Source: Sphingomonas sp. Leaf67 (GTDB taxonomy: Bacteria > Pseudomonadota > Alphaproteobacteria > Sphingomonadales > Sphingomonadaceae). From it: 64,000 nucleotides of DNA. Shown piece after piece: positions 6,768-37,295 of this stretch (within the stretch, counting starts at the first letter, position 1; every line of letters begins with the position of its first letter). A program made the position numbers and the translations under genes. The notes under the pieces were generated by a model, which was not told the DNA's origin, made no database searches, and saw only the letters and a program-made list of their open reading frames with translations. The DNA lies in assembly GCF_001421965.1 (NCBI RefSeq), contig NZ_LMLP01000001.1, forward strand, positions 1,048,711-1,112,710, given 5' to 3'.

Positions 6768-7159
6768 TCCGCATCTTCCAGCGCATGCATGTCGTCGTCG
6801 GACAGGCCGAAATGATGGCCGACCTCATGCACCACGACATGCCGGATCAGGTCGCGCAGATCGACGCCGGTCTCGCACCATTCGGCGAGTAGCGGCTGGC
6901 GATACAGATGGATGCGATCGGGCAGGCGCATCCCGTCGAACATCGATTTTTCGCCGATCGGGCTACCATGATACAGGCCGGTCAGCTCGTACGGCTCCAT
7001 CTCCATCGCCGCCAGCGTCTCCTCGTCGGCAAATTCCTCGACCAGCAGGACGATGTCGGACAGATGGCCGGCGAACGGTTCGGGAATGCGCGCCAGCGCG
7101 GCACGCGCCAACGCTTCCATCTCGGCGGCACTCGGGGCGGTTCGCGCTTGATCGGACAT
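6764..7159 (-). CDS. Zincin-like metallopeptidase family protein (PF06262 type)
   Basis: The 131-residue protein carries an HEVGHH zinc-binding motif at about residues 111-116 with a trailing acidic segment, matching the small 'possible zinc metallopeptidase' family (PF06262). An earlier in-frame start exists at 7189, but the ATG at 7159 gives the usual family N-terminus and is preferred. It overlaps ccmA by four bases. A link to cytochrome c maturation is suggested only by the operon, and the substrate is unknown. Confidence 0.8.
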   Translation of the reverse strand: MSDQARTAPSAAEMEALARAALARIPEPFAGHLSDIVLLVEEFADEETLAAMEMEPYELTGLYHGSPIGEKSMFDGMRLPDRIHLYRQPLLAEWCETGVDLRDLIRHVVVHEVGHHFGLSDDDMHALEDAD

Positions 7160-7206
7160 GGTCCACGCAATAGGCCTTGCCGCCACCACGAGACAAGGGA
7201 GCGACG

Positions 7207-7494
7207 ATGGAACCGCTGAGCCAAGCCGAACGCGCCGATGCGCTCGACGGCCTGCCCGACTGGGACCATGATGGCGGGCGGGACGCGATCGTGCGCAGCT
7301 TCACCTTCGACAATTTCAGCCAAGCGTTCGCGTTCATGACGCAGGTCGCGCTGCTGGCGGAAAAGGCCGACCATCACCCCGAATGGTCGAACGTCTATAA
7401 CCGCGTCGACATTCTGCTCACCACCCACGACGCGGGCGGGCTGTCGGACCGCGATATCGACATGGCGCAGGCGATCGACGCGCTGGTGGAATAG
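7207..7494 (+). CDS. phhB: 4a-hydroxytetrahydrobiopterin dehydratase (pterin carbinolamine dehydratase)
   Basis: This enzyme regenerates the pterin cofactor used by aromatic amino acid hydroxylases. The 95-residue protein has the DCoH/PhhB signature 'HHPEW' (about 56-60), then '[16 protein letters not shown]'. The ATG at 7207 has a good Shine-Dalgarno (GGGAG seven bases upstream). An earlier in-frame start at 7177 would overlap the divergent zincin gene and is less likely. No phenylalanine hydroxylase lies nearby. Confidence 0.92.
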
Positions 7495-7503
7495 GCAGAT
7501 CGG

Positions 7504-7529
7504 CATTCCCGTGCAGGCGGGGATGACGG
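7504..7529. repeat. dRS3-like palindromic intergenic repeat
   Basis: The unit has the form ATTCCC-N8-GGGGAT followed by GACGG. It is the same class of short interspersed palindrome as the two units at 14436-14533, in the opposite orientation to the first of those. It lies between the converging phhB and SDR genes and could form a small hairpin. Confidence 0.65.
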
Positions 7530-7542
7530 AAATCGTGCGATA

Positions 7543-8304
7543 CTATCGCCGCCGCATCTGCTGCCGTAATTTCCCCGGCATCCACCGCGCGGCGAAGCGC
7601 ATCCGCCTCGCGGTCGGGCCGACGGGCGTGTGAACCGACCCGCCATGGACCGCGTCCCACGCTGCCTGCGCCACCACCTCTAGAGGCGTAAACTCCAGCC
7701 CCGCCGCGCGGACCTGCTGGCGGACATTATGGTTGCTCCCGGCCAGTGACGCGTCGAGCAGCGGCGTGTCGATGAACCCCGGCATCAGCGAGCGTACGCG
7801 GATGCCGTCCGCCGCCCATTCGCCGTCGAGGGCCTCGGTCAGCCCATGCACCCCGAACTTCGTCGCCGAATAGACCGCAGCGCCCGCCGTCCCGTAAATC
7901 CCCGCTGCCGACGCGGTGTTCAGCAGGCAGCCACCGCTCGCCTTCAGAAACGAATGCGCGGCATGGGCGCCGTGGATGACCCCGGTCAGGTTGACAGCGA
8001 TCGTCCGTTCGATCGCGGCGGGCGTCATCTCGGCAAAGACGCCGCCAGACGCGATGCCGGCGTTATTGAACAGCACGTCAATGCCGCCGTCCCCGGCAAA
8101 GCGGGCGAGCGGCGCATCCCATGCGGCACGGTCGGTCACATCGAACACGAACGTCGCCGCCCCACCGGGCAACAACGCCGCCGTCTCCGCCAGTCCCGCG
8201 GCATTGACGTCCGCCAGCCCGATCCGCCAGCCCCGGCCGGCGAACAACTGCGCCACCGCCCGCCCGATACCCGACCCGCCGCCGGTGATGAAGATCGCGT
8301 TCAT
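7543..8304 (-). CDS. Short-chain dehydrogenase/reductase (SDR)
   Basis: The 253-residue classical SDR has the NAD(P)-binding 'TGGGSGIG' (about 7-14), 'NNAG' (80-83) and the catalytic set Ser132, Tyr145, Lys149 in 'YSATK'. An aspartate ends the second strand ('LADVN'), which favours NAD(H) over NADP(H). The ATG at 8304 starts directly at the Rossmann strand. An earlier start at 8343 adds a weak leader and is not preferred. The substrate cannot be told from sequence. Confidence 0.88.
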   Translation of the reverse strand: MNAIFITGGGSGIGRAVAQLFAGRGWRIGLADVNAAGLAETAALLPGGAATFVFDVTDRAAWDAPLARFAGDGGIDVLFNNAGIASGGVFAEMTPAAIERTIAVNLTGVIHGAHAAHSFLKASGGCLLNTASAAGIYGTAGAAVYSATKFGVHGLTEALDGEWAADGIRVRSLMPGFIDTPLLDASLAGSNHNVRQQVRAAGLEFTPLEVVAQAAWDAVHGGSVHTPVGPTARRMRFAARWMPGKLRQQMRRR

Positions 8305-8388
8305 TTCCGCAGCATCGGACAGGAACGGCGACGATGCCAACATTTTTCAGGGTCGGTCTGGAAACGCGCGAAAAGAGCGAGTTTCAAG

Positions 8389-8470
8389 GCGGTACCGGCC
8401 CGCTCCCCCTTCCGACCACCCACAGGATACACTCGATGGGTGGACGGGAGGGGGAGCGGGCCGGTACCGC
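8389..8470. repeat. Large 34-bp-arm inverted repeat between two minus-strand genes
   Basis: Arms at 8389-8422 and 8437-8470 are complementary at 32 of 34 positions and enclose a 14-base loop. Both ends carry GGTACC. The structure lies between the SDR start and the Mfd-type helicase stop. No T-run follows, and such long near-perfect arms are more like a MITE-type or REP-type repeat than a plain terminator, although it could also stop transcription from the upstream gene. Confidence 0.85.
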
Positions 8471-8503
8471 AAAACGCGCAATCGCGCGTTTTCGAACCGG
8501 CTC

Positions 8504-11500
8504 TCAGGCCGCCACCGTCTCCAGCACGTCGCGCACCTTGGTCAGCCGTTCGCCGGCATCCTCGATCCGCGCCGCGACGATCCACCGCCCGTTCTTTTCG
8601 GTCAGCCCGTCCACATCGGGCACGTCGCTGCCCCCCTGCGGCGTCAGGGCGATCGCCGCCGGGCCGGCATCGACCTTCGCCACCGCCGCCGCCTGCGCCA
8701 GCAACCGGATGCGCGCCAGATCGATAAGCAACCGCGCTTCCTCGGGCAGGGTGCCGAACCGGTCCTCCAGCTCCTCCTCGAACGCGTCGAGCGTGCCGGC
8801 GTCCTCGATCCGCGCAAGGCGACCATAGAGCATCAGCCGCATCTCGGTCTCGGGAATCCATTCTTCGGGCAGGCGCCCGGCAATGCCGAGATGCAGTTCG
8901 GGCACGACCCGGTCGACCACCTCGCCCCGTGCCGCGCGCAGCGCACGACCGAGCAGATACTGGTACAGATCGATGCCGATCAGCTTCATGTGCCCGGCCT
9001 GCGCTTCGCCAACCAGATCGCCCGCCCCGCGCAGGTCGAGGTCGCGCGCGCTGATCGCGAAGCCCGCGCCCAGCCGGTCGAACGCCTGCAACGTCCGCAG
9101 CCGCTTCAGCGTCGCCTCGGCGATCGAATGCTCGGGATCGGTCAGCAACAGGATCTGCCCGCGCCGCCCACCGCGTCCGACCCGCCCGCGCAACTGGTGT
9201 AGTTGCGACAGGCCGAACCGGTCGGCATGGTGGACGATCATCGTATTGGCGCGCGGCACGTCCAGCCCAGCCTCGATGATGTTGGTCGCCAGCAGCACGT
9301 CGCCCTCGCCATTGGCGAATCCGACCATCGCCGCGTCGATCTCCGCCGCCGGCATCTTGCCATGCGCGACGGTCAGGGTCAGTTCGGGCGCGATCTTGCG
9401 CAGCCGTTCCTCCAGCGGCGCGATATCCTCGATCCGCGGCACCACGACGAAGCTCTGCCCACCACGCGTGCGTTCGCGCAGCAAGGCGGTGCGGACCGTC
9501 ACCTCGTCGAACGCGGTCACCGCGGTACGGATCGGCTGGCGCAGCGCCGGCGGGGTGGCAAGGACCGACAATTGCTGCAACCCGATCAACGCGCTTTGCA
9601 GCGTGCGCGGGATCGGTGTCGCCGACAGCGTCATGACATGGTCGGCAATGTCGCGCAGGCGCGCCTTGTCCTTGGTGCCGAACCGCTGTTCCTCGTCGAT
9701 CACCACCAGTGCCAGATCGCGATAGTCGACATCCTTGCCCGCCACCGCCTGCGTCCCGATCACGACGCCGATCGATCCGTCGGCAAGGCCCGCCTTGACC
9801 CGCTTCTTCTCCGCCGCATCGGACAGGCGCGACAGGCCGGCGACCTCGATCCCGGTCCCCTCGAACCGGCGGCGAAAGGTTTCGACATGCTGGCGGACCA
9901 GCACCGTGGTCGGCGCGGCGATGGCGACCTGTCGCCCCGCCAGCGCGACGATCGCGGCGGCGCGCAGCGCGACCTCGGTCTTGCCATAGCCGACATCGCC
10001 GATGACCAGCCGGTCCATCGGACGCCCCGCAGCCAGATCGGCACGGGCGGCGGCGATGGCGCGCGCCTGATCGGGGGTTTCGGTGAACGGAAAGCCGGCG
10101 GCGAAGCGTTCATAGGTGGCGATATCTGCCTCGACAGCCGCGACCTCGATCGCATCGCGCTGCGCGGCGATCGCCGCCAGTTCGCGCGCGCTCTCGGCAA
10201 TCGCCGCGTCGATCGCGCCGCGCCGTTTCTGCCAGCTCGATCCGTCGAGCGCATCGAGCGTGACCGCATCACCGTCCGCGCCATAGCGCCAGATGCGGTC
10301 GGCCTCTGCCACCGGCACCAGCCGCCGCGCGCCCTTGGCATATTCCAGCACGACGGCGTCGCCCGCTTCCTCGCCGGGCAGTTGCTCCAGCCCGACGATG
10401 CGGCCGATGCCGAAATCCTCGTGAACGATCACGTCGCCGACCCGCAACTCGCCCGCCTCGGCGAACAACGGATTGGCGCTTGCCGCCGCCAGCTCGTCGC
10501 CCCGCGCCCGCCCGCCGAGCAGGTCGCCGCCGGTCACCACCGTCACGCCATCGGCCACGAAACCGCGATCGATCGGCGCGACCAGCAGCATCGCGCTGCC
10601 CGGCTCGGCGCGAACCGCTTCGTCCCACGACCCGATCGTCACCGGCTCGGTCCGGCCCAGCGTCGCCAGCCGCTTGCGCAGGAAACGCAGGTCGCGCGGA
10701 CTGCCGGCGAGCACCAGCCGTCCACCATCGAGCACCTCGCGGGCGAACTTGCCGAACGCACGCGTCGGTGCCCGGCTGGTGACGAAGCGCGGCGGCGGCG
10801 CGGCATCCGCCGGCACCTCGATCCGGTCGCGACCCTTCAGCAACTTGTCCCATGCCGTCCGGTCGACCAGCGCCGCCGCACCGCGCCGCCGCCGGCGCGT
10901 CGCATCCTCGGCAAGGTCGAGGAACCGCGCGCGCCGCCGCTCGACATCCGGGTCCATCGCCACCGCCGCTTCGGGCAGATGATCCAGCAGCGACACGCCC
11001 TCGGCCGTCACCGGCTCGGCGGCGCGGCCGATCGTCACCTCGCCCAGATCGGCATCGCCGCGCTGCGTAACCGGATCATAGCTGCGGATCGTGCGGATCG
11101 CGCCATCCTCGACGGTCACCCGGATCGGGCAGATCGCATCGGCGGGAAAGATGTCGACCACGCCGCCGCGCACCGCGACCTCGCCCGGTTCGTCGACCCG
11201 GTCGTCGACGATATAGCCCAGCTCGACCGCGCGTTCGGCAAAGTCCGCCATGTCGATCGGATCGCCGATCCGCAGCACCGGCGGCGCGGCATCGAAATCG
11301 TCCGGGGCGGCAACCCGCACCGCCGTCGCTTCCGGCGTGGTGATGCACGCGACGCGGCGACTGGTCACCGATGCGCGCCGCAACCGGCGCAGCGCCGCGA
11401 CCCGCGCCCCGGCATTGCCGGGCGATGCCGGTGCATCGTCACCGGGCAGCGCGTCGCTGGACTGAAGGTGGACCACCTCCACATCGGGCGCAATCGCGGT

Positions 11501-26937: not shown

Positions 26938-28320
26938 GTGGAACTCGATCGCACGATCGCCGAGGCCGCCCGTCGATCGGGCGAGCTTGGCATCAGGACG
27001 CTGGACTTGCAGGCCGACATTTCGGAGCTGGCTACCCGCGTCACCGCGCAAGCCGGCACGATCGATGATCTCGGAGCACAAACGAACGTCCTCGTCGTGG
27101 ACGCGAATAATGTGTCAGTCGTCGCGCAGGAGTCGCTGAGCGCAACGACCGGGGCAAATAGCCTGTTGGCAAACTCGCAGCTTCAGATCGACACGGCGAT
27201 GGGTGATGTGCTCGATCTGATCGGGCAAGTCAGCCTGATCCACGAAAGTCTCGGTGCTTTTACGGCAGCGCTGGAGGACGTCGGCAAGGTGAGCGCCACG
27301 ATCGACGACATTGCCGGACAGACAAATCTCCTTGCACTCAACGCCACCATCGAAGCGGCCCGGGCGGGCGATGCCGGACGGGGCTTCGCCGTGGTGGCGA
27401 GCGAAGTGAAGAAGCTGGCGCGAGAAACAGCGACGGCAACCTCGCGAATTAGTGCATCAATCGACGCCCTAACCTCCCAAGCAGCAGCCATGCTGGCACG
27501 CGTTGATCTGGGCGTTGCGAAAGCTCGCTCAACCCACGATGGAACGCAGGACGTTAAGGCCCGCGTAGCGCAAATCCGCCTCCTCATGGACGGCCTGCAA
27601 CACAACAGTGTAACCGTGAGCGATAAGGTCACTTCGATGGCCTCCGCCGTCGACGAGGTTCGGCTCGGGCTCAACCGCCTTGCCGAAACGTCGAGCGACA
27701 ACGCTTCGGGCCTTCAGCGCCTCTCCCATCGCCTTACCGCTGTAAGCGACGATACGAACGACCTGCTCCAGATGCTCGCCGAAAGCGGAGCAGACATGCC
27801 GGACCGGCCTTACATCCGCTTTGCCACCGAGGCAGCGCTGGCGGTATCCAAAGGCTTGCGCGAGGCGGTCGAGGATGGACGTCTGGCCCAGCATTCAATC
27901 CTAAGTGATACCTACAGCCCGGTTGAAGGCTCGGATCCACCGCTCTTCACCCATCCGGCAATGGCGCTGATCACGACGCTGGCCCGCCCGCACCAGGAAG
28001 CCGCGAGGAAGTTTCCCGGATTCTTCGGCATGAGCTTTACCGATCGCCGGTGTTTCGGCGCGGTAGCGATGCCAGAGCGCTCCCTCCCCCAACGGCGCGG
28101 TCAAAGAGCATGGAACGAGGAGCACTCACGTGCCGGCCTGTTCTTCCATTTTCCAGACACCGCCCAGCAAGTGAAGATCACCAAGCAGTTCTGCCTGAAG
28201 GCCTATCGTCGCCCTTTGGCAGACGGCGGGGTCGTTCTGCTCAAGCAGGTCATTGCGTCGATCAACGTCAACGGCGCGCACTGGGGCGTCCTCCAGCTGG
28301 CTTACGAGGATCAGGGATAA
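26938..28320 (+). CDS. Soluble methyl-accepting chemotaxis-type receptor
   Basis: The 460-residue protein has no membrane helix. A long coiled coil begins at the N-terminus and holds the MCP signalling hairpin '[17 protein letters not shown]' followed by '[15 protein letters not shown]' (about 127-160). The C-terminal third (about 285-460) has no domain I recognise and may be the sensor. GTG 26938 is chosen because AAAGGAG lies five bases upstream. No CheA/CheW lies nearby, so it would work with a chromosomal array or act alone. Confidence 0.82.
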
Positions 28321-28354: not shown

Positions 28355-28609
28355 TCAAAGGTTCATTATAAACTGCTCTGGCTTCACGTATCGCGGCGGC
28401 GGCTCGTACCCTTCGGATGCGAGGCGTTGTAGGGAAGCGACTTGCACAAGACGACGTCGGCCGAGCTTGATCGTTTGGATCTCGCCGGCCGCCACCAGTT
28501 CGTAAAAGCGCGTCCGCCCTATGCCGAGCATAGCTAGAGCGTCGTTCACCGAGATGGTGAGAGGAGTGATAGAACGCCCGCCTTTGGCTGGCGCAGATGT
28601 CTTATTCAT
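28355..28609 (-). CDS. Excisionase/AlpA-type helix-turn-helix protein
   Basis: The 84-residue protein has a MerR-like winged helix-turn-helix of the excisionase family: 'SVNDALAMLGIGRTRFYELVAAGEI', then 'KLGRRRLVQVASLQRL'. Such proteins regulate or direct excision of mobile elements. The ATG at 28609 is preferred; an in-frame start at 28726 adds low-complexity residues. It shares its layout with the 56-residue regulator at 61902-62072. No integrase is next to it, so it may be left over from a former element end. Confidence 0.85.
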   Translation of the reverse strand: MNKTSAPAKGGRSITPLTISVNDALAMLGIGRTRFYELVAAGEIQTIKLGRRRLVQVASLQRLASEGYEPPPRYVKPEQFIMNL

Positions 28610-29474
28610 CAGGTATCGCCTAAGCAGCGACGATCCTGAGCTATCGGCTTTTGGAGAGCGAGATGGTGTCCTGCGCTGTGCTCCGATGCAAGAGACAATC
28701 GGTGTGAGTTGAGCCGGTATCGTCACAACCGCGGCCGATCGCCGCTGAGGGGTTTGGGGCGGAAGCAGATGAATGCTTCATTGGCCCCTCCCCGGGCAAA
28801 ATCGCTCCGGCAAGGTTGGGCGCATTCGACATACACACCCTACGCAACCTTACGGTCAGAAACCTTCAACGTTATTAGTGATTTAGCATCAAACATTTGC
28901 GGGTCACAATGTGTTACGCTTTGTCCCACGTTGTGCCACATCGTTTGGGATCAATGGCTTAGCTGTGGGACAATGTGCCACGGGCCAAACTCTGCGCCGT
29001 TCGAGCGTATGACGCGCGATCCCATTCGATCCCATTAAAACGCAGCAGAAACAGCGCCTTACAATTTGGGATCGAATGGGATCAAAAGTTAGTCGATTGG
29101 GATCGGGTCTTTGCTCGAGAAAACCGACAGTTTCGCGCCGTTATTTGCACGCGCAGCTTGCGTAGGGTGTGCATTCGTTCCGATCGTTTGAGACTGATGC
29201 CGGCTATCTAATTCAGTGATCGGCACGAATTGATTCAGCTCCCGGCTGGGCTTTGACCGCCGAAGGGCGGAAGGTCGCTCGCGCATTGATCGCGGTTGGC
29301 GAGCGGCAATCGACTGACGCGTCGACCGTGTACCGTCGACACCCTCTTCATATCCTCGCGCGGTTCAGCCGCGTTGCATCTATACCGACCCCCTTCTGAC
29401 CATTTTGCGCCAGCCGTGCTTACGAGCTCGGTAAAAGGGGGCCGAACGTCCGCGACGCTTAAGCGCCGGGGACT
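28610..29474. other. Non-coding, lower-GC stretch with clustered repeats
   Basis: About 860 bases without a convincing gene. The DNA is less GC-rich than its surroundings. Between about 28900 and 29110 it holds GTGGGACAATGTGCCAC-like words, several TGGGATC words and a perfect 17-bp inverted repeat, listed separately. The rest, about 29110-29474, shows nothing I can assign. Confidence 0.6.
29018..29083. repeat. Perfect 17-bp inverted repeat made of doubled TGGGATC words
   Basis: Arms GATCCCATTCGATCCCA (29018-29034) and its exact complement (29067-29083) flank a 32-base spacer. Each arm holds two TGGGATC words 10 bases apart. Extra copies occur at about 28949 and 29097. This spacing, close to one helical turn, looks like a repeated protein-binding site rather than a terminator. 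Confidence 0.8.
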
Positions 29475-31748
29475 TCAACCGCGAGATCTGATTGGGATTG
29501 GCACGTTCGCGCGAGGCCGAAGTGGCTGTAGGCGGTTGCCCGAGCCCGCGACAACACGATCATACAAATCGACTGTGCCACGGTTCCGGACCGTCACTAC
29601 TAGCGCCACCTTCATGTTTGCCGGGCGCCGTCCATCATGGCCATGTTCTCTATAAATAACGCCTACATCGAACGCTGGTTGATGAAGAGATGTTGCTCGT
29701 TTACTCTTGCTGCGAGACAGCGTTGTTTCCCATTTTTGCGCATCGCTCCGCCGCATATGCTCCGTTGTATAAACGTCCTTTGCGCTAAAGAATGAATCAG
29801 ACTTGGGGACAGTAGGCGTTATCAACCTTCCGTCTTTCATGTAAGGGGGCGGAATTCGCAAAGTATCGGGACGGAACTGAACATCTAATCCGGCGCGGGT
29901 GTAATTCAATGCGTCCTCTGGATCGACATCGCAGTAGAAGCAGAACGTTGCCTTGATCTCTACCATGCCAGGAAGACCAGCTGGGATCGGTAGGAAAAAC
30001 CGAACGGCGCCCGTTTCGGGCATCTGGCGCTGATAAACAATATGCGCTTCACCATCGCCGCATAGCACGAGATCGCCGAGTTCATGCGGCACCAATCCCC
30101 ACCCGACCTCCGACCGATTCTGCGTACCAGGATCCGCAGCATGGACCAGGAGCGCCTTTACTGTTGGCGCCCATAGCGGGGTACTGAATTGAGCTCGAAC
30201 GCCGGCGCCCCCCCGAAGAGCAAGCGGCGAAGCGAAACTCGTGCCCATAGTGCCGCAGGCGCTTGCAGGACTGCCGCTGGTCAGCGCTAAGAAAGGCGCA
30301 CCAGGTGACCCGCCGAACGCTACGAAGTCGGGCTTGATGTATCCTGGACTACGCCCGGGGCCACAAGCGCTATAAGGCGCACGCCGCCAATCGGTACCAA
30401 TCTTGTCGCTCGCTCCAACGGCCAACATGTTAACGCCGTCAGATGGTGGTTGAACCCGGTGTAAACGTGCTACGCTATCGCGCTCCCCGTTGTTACCGCA
30501 GGCTACTGTGGCGACCGTTTCGCCGCTTGATAGTAAAGCGTCGAGCGTGGACGTCCATACGTTCACATCGTCGTCTTCGATTGCGCAGTCAGGGCCAACG
30601 CTAATATTGACCAAATCGTACGTTCGAGAAGTTAGGACGCCTTCGATACGGTCAAGAAGAGAAAACAATTCAAAGTCATCGGAGTTATGATCATCTCCGA
30701 TGATCCGCCAATGATCTACGTTCGAGAACGGTGGCGTATGGGGCGTTCCCGGCTGCAATGGTCCAAACAAAAACGCTGACGTGACTTGTAGGCCATGGTT
30801 CTGCGCTGCGGCAAAGGCATTCCCTACGCCCGGAGCATCGTAGGTCGTAACCCAGCGTTCCAAACCGTGGCCGGCGGGGAGGCCGCCATCAAATATCGCA
30901 ACGGACAGATCCGGCGCCAAAGCCGCTTCTGCCCCGATTGTTACTGGGAATGCCGGCCCTGACATCCGCAGCGCAGGTTCGAAAGGGTTTATGCGAGCCA
31001 CTTCCCGAAGCGCACGAAGAAAAGAGAACTGAAGCACTTCAGGTAGTTTTTCGACAGGCGCCCGCAACGGAACGAAGCACAATCCCCCCGCTTGCCGGGC
31101 GCGGCGGAGATCAATATCTAGACCAATCGACCTTACGTACTCGCGAAAGCCTGCGACGATCATGCCGTTGCTATCATCGAGTGGCGCGTGAAGGACAACT
31201 TCGAGCGGAACCTCGTCTCCAGGAGTAAAGGCGCTACGTAGGGGTTTTAAGCGGCTATCCCCTGGAATTCCAACATTCTCGATCTGGCGGAATTCGTCTT
31301 GTACGTCCTCGCGGCGCGGGGCCCAATTCGCAATCTCCGAAGCAAAGTGGGTTAGTTGCTTTGCATCTCCACCGACATACAAAACAGGGGCGGGTTGGGC
31401 TGCACCTTGTTCTACTGCTCTAGAGGAAACGACTTTGTCGGGTATGATATGGGTTGCTCTGCTGCCAAGATGACGCAGCGAAAGTTCGCGCATCAAGTGG
31501 TTTGGATAATAGCTTTTTGCTAGGTAGCTGGGATGTAGCGTAACTTCCAAGACCGCTTCGCCACCGGGTTGTGCCAAAGCGGGTTGTAAATTAATTGCAT
31601 CGGCAGCCGCCTTCCATTGAGGAGTTAGTCGGCGTCGCGCTTCGAAAAATTCATAGGGATGCGCTTTGTCGCCCATACCGCGAGGCGGCCGCGCGATCTC
31701 TTGTGAGAGCTTTTCGCCTTGGCCTATCAGGTATTGAGGGTTAGCCAC
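29475..31748 (-). CDS. ietS: IetS-like subtilisin-family (S8) serine protease
   Basis: The 757-residue protein has an S8 peptidase domain in its middle. The catalytic Asp is in 'AIFDGG' (about 285), the His in 'NHGLQVTSA' (about 316), the oxyanion Asn in 'ACGNNGE' and the nucleophile Ser in 'GTSFASP' (about 504). No signal peptide is present, so it is cytosolic. The N-terminal 270 residues are family-specific and the C-terminus is beta-rich. It is eight bases downstream of an AAA+ ATPase, the arrangement of ietAS, described as a plasmid stability (toxin-antitoxin-like) and anti-phage pair. Family identity is by pattern, not search. Confidence 0.85.
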   Translation of the reverse strand: MANPQYLIGQGEKLSQEIARPPRGMGDKAHPYEFFEARRRLTPQWKAAADAINLQPALAQPGGEAVLEVTLHPSYLAKSYYPNHLMRELSLRHLGSRATHIIPDKVVSSRAVEQGAAQPAPVLYVGGDAKQLTHFASEIANWAPRREDVQDEFRQIENVGIPGDSRLKPLRSAFTPGDEVPLEVVLHAPLDDSNGMIVAGFREYVRSIGLDIDLRRARQAGGLCFVPLRAPVEKLPEVLQFSFLRALREVARINPFEPALRMSGPAFPVTIGAEAALAPDLSVAIFDGGLPAGHGLERWVTTYDAPGVGNAFAAAQNHGLQVTSAFLFGPLQPGTPHTPPFSNVDHWRIIGDDHNSDDFELFSLLDRIEGVLTSRTYDLVNISVGPDCAIEDDDVNVWTSTLDALLSSGETVATVACGNNGERDSVARLHRVQPPSDGVNMLAVGASDKIGTDWRRAPYSACGPGRSPGYIKPDFVAFGGSPGAPFLALTSGSPASACGTMGTSFASPLALRGGAGVRAQFSTPLWAPTVKALLVHAADPGTQNRSEVGWGLVPHELGDLVLCGDGEAHIVYQRQMPETGAVRFFLPIPAGLPGMVEIKATFCFYCDVDPEDALNYTRAGLDVQFRPDTLRIPPPYMKDGRLITPTVPKSDSFFSAKDVYTTEHMRRSDAQKWETTLSRSKSKRATSLHQPAFDVGVIYREHGHDGRRPANMKVALVVTVRNRGTVDLYDRVVAGSGNRLQPLRPRANVPIPIRSRG

Positions 31749-31756
31749 GCATCCTC

Positions 31757-32863
31757 CTATTTATTTCCGCTTGCACGCGAACGTCGCAGCGTATCCCGAG
31801 AGATACCAATTTCGCTACTAATCTGCCGGTCAGAAAAGCCCAATTTGGACAGAATTTCCGCAGCACGCCTGCGATTTTCTGTAGAGGCTTCACGTAGTGA
31901 CGATGCAACGCCGTCGACCATAGCCCGGCTTAGTTCGACACCTTGGATAGCAGCACGACGACGCATCGCCCGAACTTGACGAGCCATGTCGCTCGGCGTT
32001 TTGTCCTTCCAGACATCCACAAGTACAGGAAGCCACGGTTCGACGTCGTCGTGATGGTCGAATAAATCCTTAATCATCCGGATCCGAACATCGACACTAG
32101 GCAAATCGAAATTTAGCACGTCATCAAAACGACGCCATATGGCGGGATCAAGCAGTTCGCCGTGATTAGTCGCTGCAATCAAGAGGCTAGAAGCCGGCCA
32201 ATCGTCGATCTCTTGCAAAAGTACATTAACTAGCCTCTTGAGTTCGCCTATATCTCCGTCGTCGTCACGGCGTTTTGCAATCGCATCAAATTCATCAAGC
32301 AGTAAGACCGAACTCACGCTTTTGGCGTATTCAAGCGCTGATCTGATGTTCGATCCTGTTTTGCCGAGGTAGCTGCTCATCACGGTGGCTAAATCTAATG
32401 TGATGAGGGGAAGGCCAAGCCTTGCGGCGAGCCACCTCGCGGACATTGTTTTTCCAACGCCGGGCGGCCCCACAAATAACAGTGACCGCGTTGGGGGCAG
32501 CCCTTGCGCTTCGAGTGCCGTAATCTGCCCGTGTTCAGCGACAACCTGGTCAATTCGATCAAGCAGATCGGGTCCGAGTGCGGGGTCATCGCCGACAACT
32601 ACCGGATATTCGTGCCGTACCAACGCGAGACGCGAGTCCGCATCTATCGGAACCATGCCGGCCCCCGCTTCCCGGAGCGGCGCTGCCGCGCTGGGCAAGG
32701 AGGACAGCAGTGCTGCTAGGCGGGTGGCAATCTCTGGCGAACGACGACGTAGCTTAGCTATCGATTGCCTGATCTGCGCCTGCACATCTTGGGGCCGTCC
32801 CGTAAGCGCCAAACGCGACACCTGGACTAGCTCGTCCGATAAGGTGTCTTTCAAGTCCACCAC
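31757..32863 (-). CDS. ietA: IetA-like AAA+ ATPase with C-terminal helix-turn-helix
   Basis: The 368-residue protein has an AAA+ core with Walker A 'GPPGVGKT' (about 133-140), Walker B 'LLLDEFD' (about 188-194) and a sensor 'IAATNH'. The last 30 residues, 'KLGFSDRQISSEIGISRDTLRR', form a helix-turn-helix. The start is GTG at 32863, with AAGGAG six bases upstream; a second GTG follows immediately. It precedes the subtilase by eight bases, so both are one operon. By analogy with ietAS it would control or deliver substrates to the protease. Confidence 0.87.
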   Translation of the reverse strand: MVDLKDTLSDELVQVSRLALTGRPQDVQAQIRQSIAKLRRRSPEIATRLAALLSSLPSAAAPLREAGAGMVPIDADSRLALVRHEYPVVVGDDPALGPDLLDRIDQVVAEHGQITALEAQGLPPTRSLLFVGPPGVGKTMSARWLAARLGLPLITLDLATVMSSYLGKTGSNIRSALEYAKSVSSVLLLDEFDAIAKRRDDDGDIGELKRLVNVLLQEIDDWPASSLLIAATNHGELLDPAIWRRFDDVLNFDLPSVDVRIRMIKDLFDHHDDVEPWLPVLVDVWKDKTPSDMARQVRAMRRRAAIQGVELSRAMVDGVASSLREASTENRRRAAEILSKLGFSDRQISSEIGISRDTLRRSRASGNK

Positions 32864-32899
32864 AATAACTCCTTACTTCTTTGGATGCAGGGCTTAGCA

Positions 32900-32936
32900 T
32901 GGACTAGCTGGCGTTGCATAGAACAAAGCTAGTCCA
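32900..32936. promoter_or_regulatory. 10-bp inverted repeat upstream of ietA, candidate operator
   Basis: Perfect arms TGGACTAGCT (32900-32909) and AGCTAGTCCA (32927-32936) are separated by 17 bases, 37 bases upstream of the ietA start. No T-run follows on the minus strand, which argues against a terminator for the preceding gene. The helix-turn-helix of IetA could bind it for autoregulation. Confidence 0.5.
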
Positions 32937-32979
32937 CTCGTCGCATTGGCAGGATCCGTTGGCAGTGCGTCAGTGTCAG

Positions 32980-33417
32980 TTAGGAGACAAACATCGCCTC
33001 GACGATCGCTTGCATCAACACCCCGCGTGGCACAGGCACACTGACCGACGTATAGCCAGCGTTGCGAGCGCGACGCTGACCGTACAGCCCGATCCACTGT
33101 CGGCCATGCTGACGCCAGGCGCGCTGTAACGCCGGTACGGGCAATAGAACGCACGTCGCGGCTGGCGCGTGGGCATAGGCGATGAAGTCCGCCGCCAACG
33201 GCTTCTGCACCCACCCTGGTGACCGCGCCGCCTCGTCCGACCAACGTTCGAGCAGGACGTCGGGCCAGTCCTCGGTCCTGATCTTTTCGTCGACCGTGTA
33301 GGTCCGCCCGCAAGCCAGCGTCAGCAACCGGTCGATCCCGCCGCGCTGCGCCCAGCCGTCATTGCGGACAGCGACGGCCGACATGAGCGACGGAAACGCA
33401 CGCCGGTAGATGGGCAA
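32980..33417 (-). CDS. Unknown protein, possibly PD-(D/E)XK nuclease-like
   Basis: At least 145 residues. The segment 'VDEKIRTEDWPDVLLERW', followed by 'GWVQKPLAADFIAYA', has acidic and lysine positions spaced as in PD-(D/E)XK folds, but this is a pattern guess. The only initiator seen is a TTG at 33417. The frame is open well upstream, past 33551 ('HHFRESLALSERFGDGWWLP'), without ATG or GTG, so the true start may have been lost or be non-standard. It follows the small-gene operon on the same strand. Confidence 0.55.
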   Translation of the reverse strand: MPIYRRAFPSLMSAVAVRNDGWAQRGGIDRLLTLACGRTYTVDEKIRTEDWPDVLLERWSDEAARSPGWVQKPLAADFIAYAHAPAATCVLLPVPALQRAWRQHGRQWIGLYGQRRARNAGYTSVSVPVPRGVLMQAIVEAMFVS

Positions 33418-33550
33418 CCACCAGCCGTCGCCGAACCGCTCGGAAAGAGCCAGGCTTTCGCGGAAGTGGTGAGTACGGCCAGCGCCCGCCGATCGGGAAG
33501 CGATCAGCGGGAACGGCGGGCGGCGGACTGGGGCGCTATGGCCCGCGAGG

Positions 33551-36784: not shown

Positions 36785-36923
36785 GCGACGCGATCAACCC
36801 GCAAGGATAGAATTCACCGCGCGTTCGGCATCTATGCCAAGCGTAACCGCTTCCGCACGATCCATGCCCGGTAACGCGATCAAGATGGCTTGATGTCGCG
36901 CCGCTATGCTATGGGTCGAGACT

Positions 36924-37295
36924 ATGCTCGACCCGCATTCCGTCCTTGGCATTCAACAGAACGCTGAGCCGGAAGTGATTGATGCCGCCTACCGCGCGCT
37001 AATGAAGAAGTACCATCCCGACCACTCTGGTCCGGACGGCCTCGAAAAAGCCAAAGCAATCACTCTTGCATATGCGGCCTTGAAGGGCCGCACACCTGAA
37101 CGCCCCTTCGGTGCGCCAGACACCGGCTCGGGATTGAGGCCAACACCCATGCCGGACGCGGGCCCGTCTAACGGACACATCGACTATTTGCCGACGCCGC
37201 CGCTTCGGATGGGCGTAAGGCTCGGGTTCGCTATGCTGGCACTATTCGGCATTCCGCTTCTAGGCGCCGCCATTCTGAAACTCGCTGGTGGCTAG
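36924..37295 (+). CDS. J-domain protein with C-terminal membrane helix
   Basis: The 123-residue protein has an N-terminal J domain ('LDPHSVLGI', then 'YHPDHSG' with the HPD motif, about residues 30-32) and a C-terminal hydrophobic helix (about 100-120), with a proline-rich linker. It would recruit DnaK to the membrane. ATG 36924 fits the usual J-domain start; an in-frame start at 36906 exists. It converges on the large phage-like gene with a four-base overlap. Confidence 0.85.
   Translation: MLDPHSVLGIQQNAEPEVIDAAYRALMKKYHPDHSGPDGLEKAKAITLAYAALKGRTPERPFGAPDTGSGLRPTPMPDAGPSNGHIDYLPTPPLRMGVRLGFAMLALFGIPLLGAAILKLAGG

What the first reader, a model, noticed from the sequence alone, without database searches (positions are those of the whole stretch)
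29475..32863. IetA/IetS-type ATPase-subtilase pair with an HTH on the ATPase
A cytosolic subtilase with a full Asp-His-Ser triad is encoded eight bases after an AAA+ ATPase, matching ietAS, which is described both as a plasmid-stability module and as an anti-phage system. Here the ATPase ends in a helix-turn-helix, so one protein could combine chaperone/ATPase and repressor roles. The pair sits in an island between repeats, and its trigger is unknown.
Basis: partly seen in the sequence, partly recalled or inferred. Interest (0 to 1): 0.65.

Follow-up and report, generated by a model that had tools for sequence, protein, structure and literature searches.

The report
Self-repressing ATPase–protease toxin–antitoxin pair
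This is a divergent member of a known bacterial protease-toxin and ATPase-antitoxin pair linked to plasmid stability and phage defence, and DNA sites conserved at the start of its operon suggest that the ATPase also switches off its own genes, which would give a first handle on how such pairs are controlled.

Summary
The pair is real, on the minus strand: an IetA-type AAA+ ATPase (32863-31757), then 8 nt later an IetS-type subtilase (31748-29475) with Asp287, His318, Ser504. It is a divergent IetAS: PADLOC IetA 8.7e-83, IetS 3.3e-30, but below both NCBIfam cut-offs. The C-terminal HTH is real (modelled with confidence) but not special to this copy: all 34 homologues aligned have it.

New here: two 39-bp palindromic sites (8-bp half-sites, 23 bp apart), O1 (32899-32937) before ietA and O2 (32822-32860) in its first codons, the only two places in the 4.19-Mb genome within one mismatch. 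Of 51 non-redundant loci 38 have a site (control windows 100 of 1697) and 23 have two; 23 of 24 site pairs are 74-77 or 84.5-87 bp apart, classes one DNA turn apart. Inside the gene the O2 half-site goes with unusual codons (12 of 16 against 6 of 218). Recognition-helix residues track the half-site, on few independent changes.

Most likely IetA is antitoxin and autorepressor; DNA binding is inferred, not shown. Nothing I saw in print describes this; the founding 2009 paper could not be read.

The parts
31757..32863 (-). ietA-like gene: AAA+ ATPase, 368 aa, GTG start; likely antitoxin and autorepressor
   Evidence: PADLOC IetA PDLC02196 8.7e-83; NCBIfam IteA 232 bits against cut-off 510; Pfam AAA 9.3e-31
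32105..32482 (-). AAA domain, residues 128-253
   Evidence: Pfam PF00004; Walker and Arg residues invariant in 34 aligned sequences; nearest solved chains p97/Cdc48 by profile, FtsH/p97/proteasome/Vps4 by fold
31763..31882 (-). C-terminal HTH, residues 328-367, recognition helix region GISRDTLRR
   Evidence: AlphaFold2 models; alignment A3 of 30 sequences; best VIA-align rows are mostly DNA-binding HTHs: Spo0J/ParB Z 5.8, serine recombinase and Tn3 resolvase, TrpR
29475..31748 (-). ietS-like gene: subtilase, 757 aa, GTG start, no signal peptide seen by eye; likely toxin/effector
   Evidence: PADLOC IetS PDLC02197 3.3e-30; NCBIfam IteS 71 bits against cut-off 900; Pfam Peptidase_S8 2.3e-18; Asp287, His318, Ser504 invariant in 24 aligned sequences
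32899..32937 (-). Site O1, 39 bp: GTGGACTA-N23-TAGTCCAT (gene orientation, -74 to -36)
   Evidence: the only zero-mismatch place in the genome for TGGACTA-N23-TAGTCCA
32822..32860 (-). Site O2, 39 bp: GTGGACTT-N23-TAGTCCAG, in codons 2-14 of ietA, 77 bp from O1
   Evidence: the only one-mismatch place in the genome; codon-level constraint in homologues
32869..32874 (-). Ribosome-binding-site-like AAGGAG before the GTG start of ietA
   Evidence: read from the sequence
28355..28726 (-). Small excisionase-like HTH protein (123 aa) beyond ietS; neighbour, probably part of the mobile element
   Evidence: Pfam HTH_17 1.2e-07; TIGR01764 26.2 bits, below its cut-off 28.8

Best explanation
A divergent IetAS toxin-antitoxin/defence pair on a mobile insert. 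IetS is a cytosolic protease toxin held in check by the AAA+ protein IetA. IetA carries a C-terminal HTH on each subunit of a presumed hexamer and binds two 39-bp palindromic operators, O1 before the gene and O2 overlapping its first codons, set in fixed helical phase, so it represses its own operon. Loss, titration or inactivation of IetA would at once free IetS and derepress the operon. Shown here: gene pair, conserved catalytic residues, modelled HTH, conserved sites, their phasing, the codon constraint. Inferred: that IetA binds the sites, that binding represses, the hexamer, toxicity of this IetS, the trigger.
For: Family matches. HTH in all 34 homologues and in the models. O1 and O2 are the only two places with at most one mismatch in 4.19 Mb. 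Exact-consensus scan: 24 of 54 upstream regions score at least 13 of 16 against 0 of 1404 control windows; the window and six others of the 54 had suggested the consensus, L105 came in by the pattern itself, and near-copies were still in. Degenerate scan on 51 non-redundant loci: 38 with a site, 23 with two or more; controls 100 and 8 of 1697. Nine plasmid loci first seen after that scan was fixed: 8 with a site, 3 with two. Pair spacing: 9 at 74-77, 14 at 84.5-87, 1 at 62.5; the classes change 5 times on the tree, at least 3 forced by well-supported branches. O2 codons: NTA-GTC at 12 of 16 [LI]V places against 6 of 218 elsewhere in the same genes (Fisher 7e-13). Helix residue against half-site base: Asp with C, Glu or Asn with A at base 6; Ser with T, Ala with G at base 7. 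Antitoxin and toxin roles rest on the homologous SGI1 sgiAT and mycoplasma pairs (PMC5006074, section 4 read; PMC8562856, passages).
Against: No binding or expression data. 13 of 51 loci lack a recognisable site. A consensus-free palindrome test is weaker: 14 of 54 upstream regions with at least 8 of 9 pairs against 209 of 3125 controls. The bare palindrome is not specific: 1 of 64 matches in viral contigs has an ietA beside it, and 64 exceeds the 11 of a reversed control. The residue-base association rests on 2-4 independent changes; the base went the expected way in 2.8 of 3 and 1.6 of 2 pairs on average, and a sign test cannot reach 0.05. No sigma-70-like promoter was found in 29000-33200. 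Scores of O2 are helped by conserved coding, which the codon test answers in part.
Confidence: 0.72

Rival explanations
1. The HTH is a docking or structural element and O1/O2 are bound by another regulator, for example the excisionase-like protein of the mobile element or a host repressor.
For: A small excisionase-like HTH gene lies nearby; the same bare palindrome occurs away from ietA in viral contigs.
Against: The sites travel with ietA across several phyla; half-site changes go with recognition-helix residues, on few independent changes; gammaproteobacterial IetA with a different helix (SRPT[VI]K/R) have a different upstream word, GGTAA, at 17.8 per kb against 2.4 per kb elsewhere in 11 loci.
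Confidence: 0.13
2. The repeats act as RNA: a 5' leader hairpin or attenuator that sets translation of ietA.
For: Inverted arms could pair in RNA; O2 overlaps the start of the coding region.
Against: The two-site spacing falls into classes one DNA turn apart; in L018, L019 and L009 both sites lie upstream; distant IetA loci have direct repeats at 20-22 bp or multiples, which cannot form such hairpins (9 of 11 loci, classes chosen). RNA folding was not tested.
Confidence: 0.05
3. Energy-dependent protease (not exclusive of autorepression): IetA is an unfoldase that feeds substrates to IetS (ClpX-ClpP-like), the HTH guiding the complex to DNA-bound or phage targets.
For: IetA is nearest in fold and sequence to FtsH, p97, Vps4 and proteasomal ATPases.
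Against: In homologous pairs the subtilase is toxic alone and the ATPase neutralises it (PMC8562856). The conserved sites are at ietA itself.
Confidence: 0.25
4. Ordinary housekeeping ATPase and subtilase that happen to be neighbours.
For: None found.
Against: In the 34 homologues the same subtilase stands next to the ATPase. Close relatives are patchy: at E 1e-55 in 1 of 396, 4 of 385 and 5 of 398 genomes, the window's own included each time; at 1e-20 in 46 of 298 of the family, kinds of AAA+ protein not sorted.
Confidence: 0.01

Closest known systems
IetAS of Agrobacterium pTiC58 (Yamamoto 2009) and IteA/IteS anti-phage system (NCBIfam; PADLOC IetAS)
   Same: AAA+ ATPase directly upstream of an S8 peptidase; PADLOC IetA and IetS models match over nearly full length; an HTH-like end, by eye, also in annotated IteA of an Acidovorax plasmid.
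   Different: Below NCBIfam cut-offs (232 of 510; 71 of 900 bits). The O1/O2 palindromes were found in this branch; in 9 of 11 distant loci the main upstream repeat spacing is 20-22 bp or a multiple. The pTiC58 locus was not fetched and the 2009 paper is not held.
SgiAT of Salmonella Genomic Island 1
   Same: Homologous pair; subtilase toxin, ATPase antitoxin, shown by toxicity and neutralisation (section 4 read).
   Different: Regulation was left open there; a term search of that paper found no HTH, autoregulation, repression, DNA binding or palindrome. Its sequence was not fetched.
A132/T133 AAA-ATPase/subtilase of Mycoplasma mycoides
   Same: Same two-gene architecture, functional as toxin-antitoxin (passages).
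   Different: A distant bacterial group; a term search found no HTH or DNA binding in the text.
Type II toxin-antitoxin autoregulation (antitoxin with DNA-binding domain)
   Same: Antitoxin with HTH, palindromic sites at the operon's own start (general knowledge; abstracts listed).
   Different: The antitoxin is an AAA+ ATPase, the toxin a protease, and one site lies inside the antitoxin's coding region.

Membership tests
IetAS | AAA+ ATPase of the IetA family | tested here: met
   PADLOC IetA 8.7e-83, residues 10-362 on profile 5-367 of 374
IetAS | S8 peptidase of the IetS family with full triad, adjacent | tested here: met
   PADLOC IetS 3.3e-30, residues 36-730 on profile 37-725 of 749; triad invariant; 8 nt apart
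IetAS | Toxicity of IetS neutralised by IetA; phage protection or plasmid stability | not testable with these tools
   Known only for homologues
IteA/IteS equivalogs (NCBIfam NF042959, NF042956) | Score above curated cut-offs 510 and 900 bits | tested here: not met
   232.2 and 71.4 bits: related, outside these equivalog families
HTH DNA-binding domain | Helical HTH fold at the ATPase C-terminus | tested here: met
   Models at pLDDT about 90, lower in the last residues; best VIA-align rows mostly DNA-binding HTHs, top Z 5.8, rmsd 4.0, 63 residues; Foldseek none at E 0.001 or less
HTH DNA-binding domain | Score above a Pfam HTH cut-off | tested here: not met
   Best Xre-like-HTH 20.9 against 25.8 bits
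Autoregulated type II toxin-antitoxin operon | Conserved palindromic sites at the start of the operon | tested here: met
   38 of 51 loci with a site against 100 of 1697 control windows; promoter itself not located
Autoregulated type II toxin-antitoxin operon | Antitoxin binds them and represses | not testable with these tools
   No binding data; residue-base association only

The most novel reading that the evidence does not exclude
Across the IetA family the AAA+ ring is itself a DNA-binding repressor that reads arrays of half-sites set in fixed helical phase (31 bp within and about 75 or 86 bp between palindromes here; about 21 bp and multiples in other branches), one site embedded in its own coding region. 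ATP state or a phage factor would switch IetA between DNA-bound repressor and protease-bound antitoxin, so that loss of the ring both frees and derepresses the protease. The same arrays could explain why an ietAS locus confers plasmid incompatibility.
Probability: 0.45. Interest if true: 0.78.

Novelty: new variant of a known kind. Interest (0 to 1): 0.62.

Why it matters
How ietAS-type pairs are controlled and triggered is open: the SGI1 study says that the mechanisms of regulation and the inducers 'remain to be identified' (PMC5006074), and a 2025 paper says that the mechanism of action of IetAS 'remains unknown' (PMC11878078, passages). Two defined 39-bp sites and a mapped recognition helix make the question directly testable by binding and reporter assays. 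An AAA+ antitoxin that doubles as a multi-site repressor would also be an unusual design among toxin-antitoxin systems.

Tried and rejected
Housekeeping origin: rejected by conserved pairing. HTH as a peculiarity of this copy: rejected. Long direct repeats around the island: not found. A third copy of the 10-mer inside ietA first looked like a lone extra site; it proved to be the right half of O2. Reverse search by the bare palindrome in viral contigs as proof of specificity: failed, 1 of 64; the other 63 are unexplained. Promoter consensus near O1: none found. Consensus-free palindrome scan: only weak enrichment. Tree-aware test of the residue-base association: too few independent changes. 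Foldseek on the C-terminal domain: no hit at E 0.001 or less. The ATPases of loci L040-L067 were set aside from the operator counts: many end without an HTH-like segment and their downstream genes are cut by the locus end; four of them with an HTH-like end (L040, L047, L048, L060) went into the distant set.

Rows dropped before counts: 63 loci became 51 by leaving out 12 at 90% or more IetA identity. L035-L037 (partial) and L040-L067 were left out. Of 11 plasmid loci fetched, the two distant ones (L155, L156) were left out of the nine; neither has a site at 13 of 16. In the half-site table, sites nearer than 40 nt to the start were left out; the locus-level test used 30 of 51 loci.

Chosen after seeing data: the degenerate letters M and K of the scan (before the plasmid loci were seen) and the spacing classes (after on the same 11 loci).
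Full report
OBSERVATION. The window lies in a 4.19-Mb genome of 25 contigs at G000:C1:1048711-1112710; the nearest named homologues of the ATPase are from Sphingopyxis (71%), Pararhizobium (63%) and Sphingobium (60%). On the minus strand an AAA+ ATPase gene (32863-31757, 368 aa) is followed after 8 nt by a subtilase gene (31748-29475, 757 aa). Pfam gives AAA 9.3e-31 and Peptidase_S8 2.3e-18. PADLOC gives IetA 8.7e-83 and IetS 3.3e-30. NCBIfam IteA and IteS match at 232 and 71 bits, far below their cut-offs of 510 and 900, so this is a divergent IetAS and not an IteA/IteS equivalog. Asp287, His318 and Ser504 are invariant in 24 aligned IetS sequences, window included.

THE HTH. In all 34 homologues aligned the ATPase ends in a segment like SQR-x-x-x-ELTGVSRDTIRK. 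AlphaFold2 on 34 sequences (window included) puts helices at 328-340, 345-352 and 356-367 with block pLDDT 90-92, 75 in the last eight residues; the isolated domain gives the same helices. VIA-align ranks DNA-binding domains highest: Spo0J/ParB (Z 5.8, rmsd 4.0, 63 residues), a serine recombinase, Tn3 resolvase and TrpR; Foldseek has no hit at E 0.001 or less. Such Z values are modest. An annotated IteA of an Acidovorax plasmid, a Rhizobium IetA and others also end in an HTH-like segment, judged by eye. The HTH is therefore not special to this copy.

FINDING THE SITES. The 10-mer TGGACTAGCT occurs three times in the genome, all within 114 bp at the start of ietA. Two copies form an inverted repeat before the gene, and a like repeat of the same 39-bp span stands before ietA in six other loci, two more with variants. 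An exact-consensus scan (GTGGACTA, 22-24 nt, TAGTCCAC) found at least 13 of 16 matches in 24 of 54 upstream regions and in 0 of 1404 control windows of the same loci. The window and those six loci had suggested the consensus, L105 had come in by the pattern itself (L146 is the same contig), and near-copies were still in. A consensus-free palindrome test gave 14 of 54 against 209 of 3125, a weaker signal.

TWO SITES. A degenerate scan (RTGGAMKA, 22-24 nt, TMKTCCAY) showed a second site of the same geometry, usually inside the first codons of ietA. In the window O1 is 32899-32937 and O2 32822-32860. In the genome TGGACTA-N23-TAGTCCA occurs with no mismatch at O1 only, with one at O2 only, and with two at five other places; the reversed control pattern has 39 places. 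Among 51 non-redundant loci, window included, 38 have a site and 23 have two or more; among 1697 control windows 100 and 8. Outside the gammaproteobacterial clade it is 35 and 23 of 41, inside it 3 of 10 have a site. Nine plasmid loci, first seen after the scan had been fixed, gave 8 with a site and 3 with two; two of the eight (L162, L165) have one only in the coding region, L165's probably by chance. Two more distant plasmid loci fetched with them (L155, L156) have none at 13 of 16.

PHASING. Of 24 site pairs 9 are 74-77 bp apart, 14 are 84.5-87 and one is 62.5; none lies between 77 and 84.5. The classes differ by one turn of DNA. On a tree of 51 IetA proteins they change 5 times at the least, and well-supported branches force 3 changes of the 75-bp label. 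In L018, L019 and L009 both sites lie upstream of the gene, 75-75.5 bp apart, and in L006 the left arm of O2 is before the ATG.

CODON CONSTRAINT. Where the O2 half-site lies in the gene it is often read as Leu/Ile-Val-His/Gln. Of 16 loci with Leu/Ile-Val at that place 12 use NTA-GTC, against 6 of 218 Leu/Ile-Val pairs elsewhere in the 51 genes (Fisher 7e-13). NTA codons are expected 2.45 times and seen 12. In L039 and L139, whose upstream site reads GGACGA, the residue is Phe (TTC-GTC-CA), so the site may shape the protein.

RECOGNITION. Half-sites upstream: with Asp in SRDT the sixth base is C in 52 of 58; with Glu or Asn it is A in 12 of 12; with Ser the seventh base is T in 38 of 48, with Ala G in 19 of 24. 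By locus the majority base agrees in 24 of 26, 4 of 4, 17 of 21 and 8 of 9; with ties read the other way 25 of 26, 4 of 4, 19 of 21 and 8 of 9 of the same 30 loci. Independent changes number only 2-4; on average 2.8 of 3 and 1.6 of 2 go the expected way, and a sign test cannot reach 0.05. In 11 loci of the gammaproteobacterial clade with SRPT[VI]K/R another word, GGTAA, stands upstream at 17.8 per kb against 2.4 per kb elsewhere.

OTHER BRANCHES. In 11 distant IetA loci (two pairs of close relatives among them; 8 of the 11 checked as IetA by PADLOC) the commonest repeat spacing upstream is 20-22, 41-43 or 62-64 bp in 9; control windows of the same loci show this in 104 of 819; in the gammaproteobacterial clade 7 of 10. 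These classes were chosen after seeing the same 11 loci, so this is a lead, not a test.

AGAINST. Thirteen of 51 loci have no site. In viral contigs the exact palindrome has 64 matches and a reversed control 11; only one of the 64 (L105) has an ietA beside it. The other 63 are unexplained. No sigma-70-like promoter was found in 29000-33200.

MECHANISM. Homologous pairs act as toxin-antitoxin: SGI1 subtilase S025 is toxic and ATPase S026 neutralises it (PMC5006074, section 4 read); a mycoplasma pair behaves alike (PMC8562856, passages). I therefore read IetS as the toxin and IetA as antitoxin and as repressor of its own operon at O1 and O2. Fold and sequence place IetA near ring-forming FtsH, p97 and Vps4, so several HTHs per ring and phased sites would fit together; this is inference.

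CONTEXT. About 28.3-32.95 kb had no match among those listed for 80 genus relatives (the list was cut), while the chemotaxis gene before it (about 26945-28320) and about 32976-33499 after it were matched. An excisionase-like gene lies at 28355-28726. Phage-type genes follow, but element ends were not mapped.

LITERATURE. In the rows listed by searches (3 to 20 rows each, of up to 2,063 papers) I saw no paper on an HTH, operator or autoregulation of IetA. Passages were read in PMC11878078, PMC8562856, PMC8409611 and PMC3874152 and one section and passages of PMC5006074. The 2009 founding paper is not held, so it may contain promoter work; that it links the locus to incompatibility is known to me from its title.

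Noticed in passing
L069:9314-10519 and 6814-9339 (minus), G000:C1 about 20 kb beyond the window end: A second ietAS pair in the same genome, closer to the PADLOC models (IetA 4.5e-157, IetS 5.5e-298), with a large helicase-like and a large ATPase-like gene nearby, judged by eye.
   Followed up: partly
viral contigs L073-L136: The palindrome GTGGACTA-N23-TAGTCCAC is in 64 stretches against 11 for a reversed control, and 63 have no ietA in the held DNA; several have longer arms.
   Followed up: no
L157 (Paenarthrobacter plasmid pTC1), 4351-5498: ISAau1 transposase genes lie between ietA and the next gene, a hypothetical protein that was not tested as IetS.
   Followed up: no
L158, L159, L166: Multiubiquitin and ThiF/E1-like genes stand directly beside ietAS on Methylovirgula and Bradyrhizobium plasmids.
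   Followed up: no
L155 (Acidovorax plasmid): Annotated iteA/iteS sits between a site-specific integrase and a Shedu nuclease gene.
   Followed up: no
L153: An IetA homologue on a viral contig with no IetS match in about 3 kb downstream and no site at 13 of 16.
   Followed up: no
window 29010-29110: Repeated GGGATCGAATGGGATC-like words in the stretch beyond ietS (read by eye).
   Followed up: no
window 36906-37295: Small J-domain protein (Pfam DnaJ 2.1e-10) beside phage-type genes.
   Followed up: no
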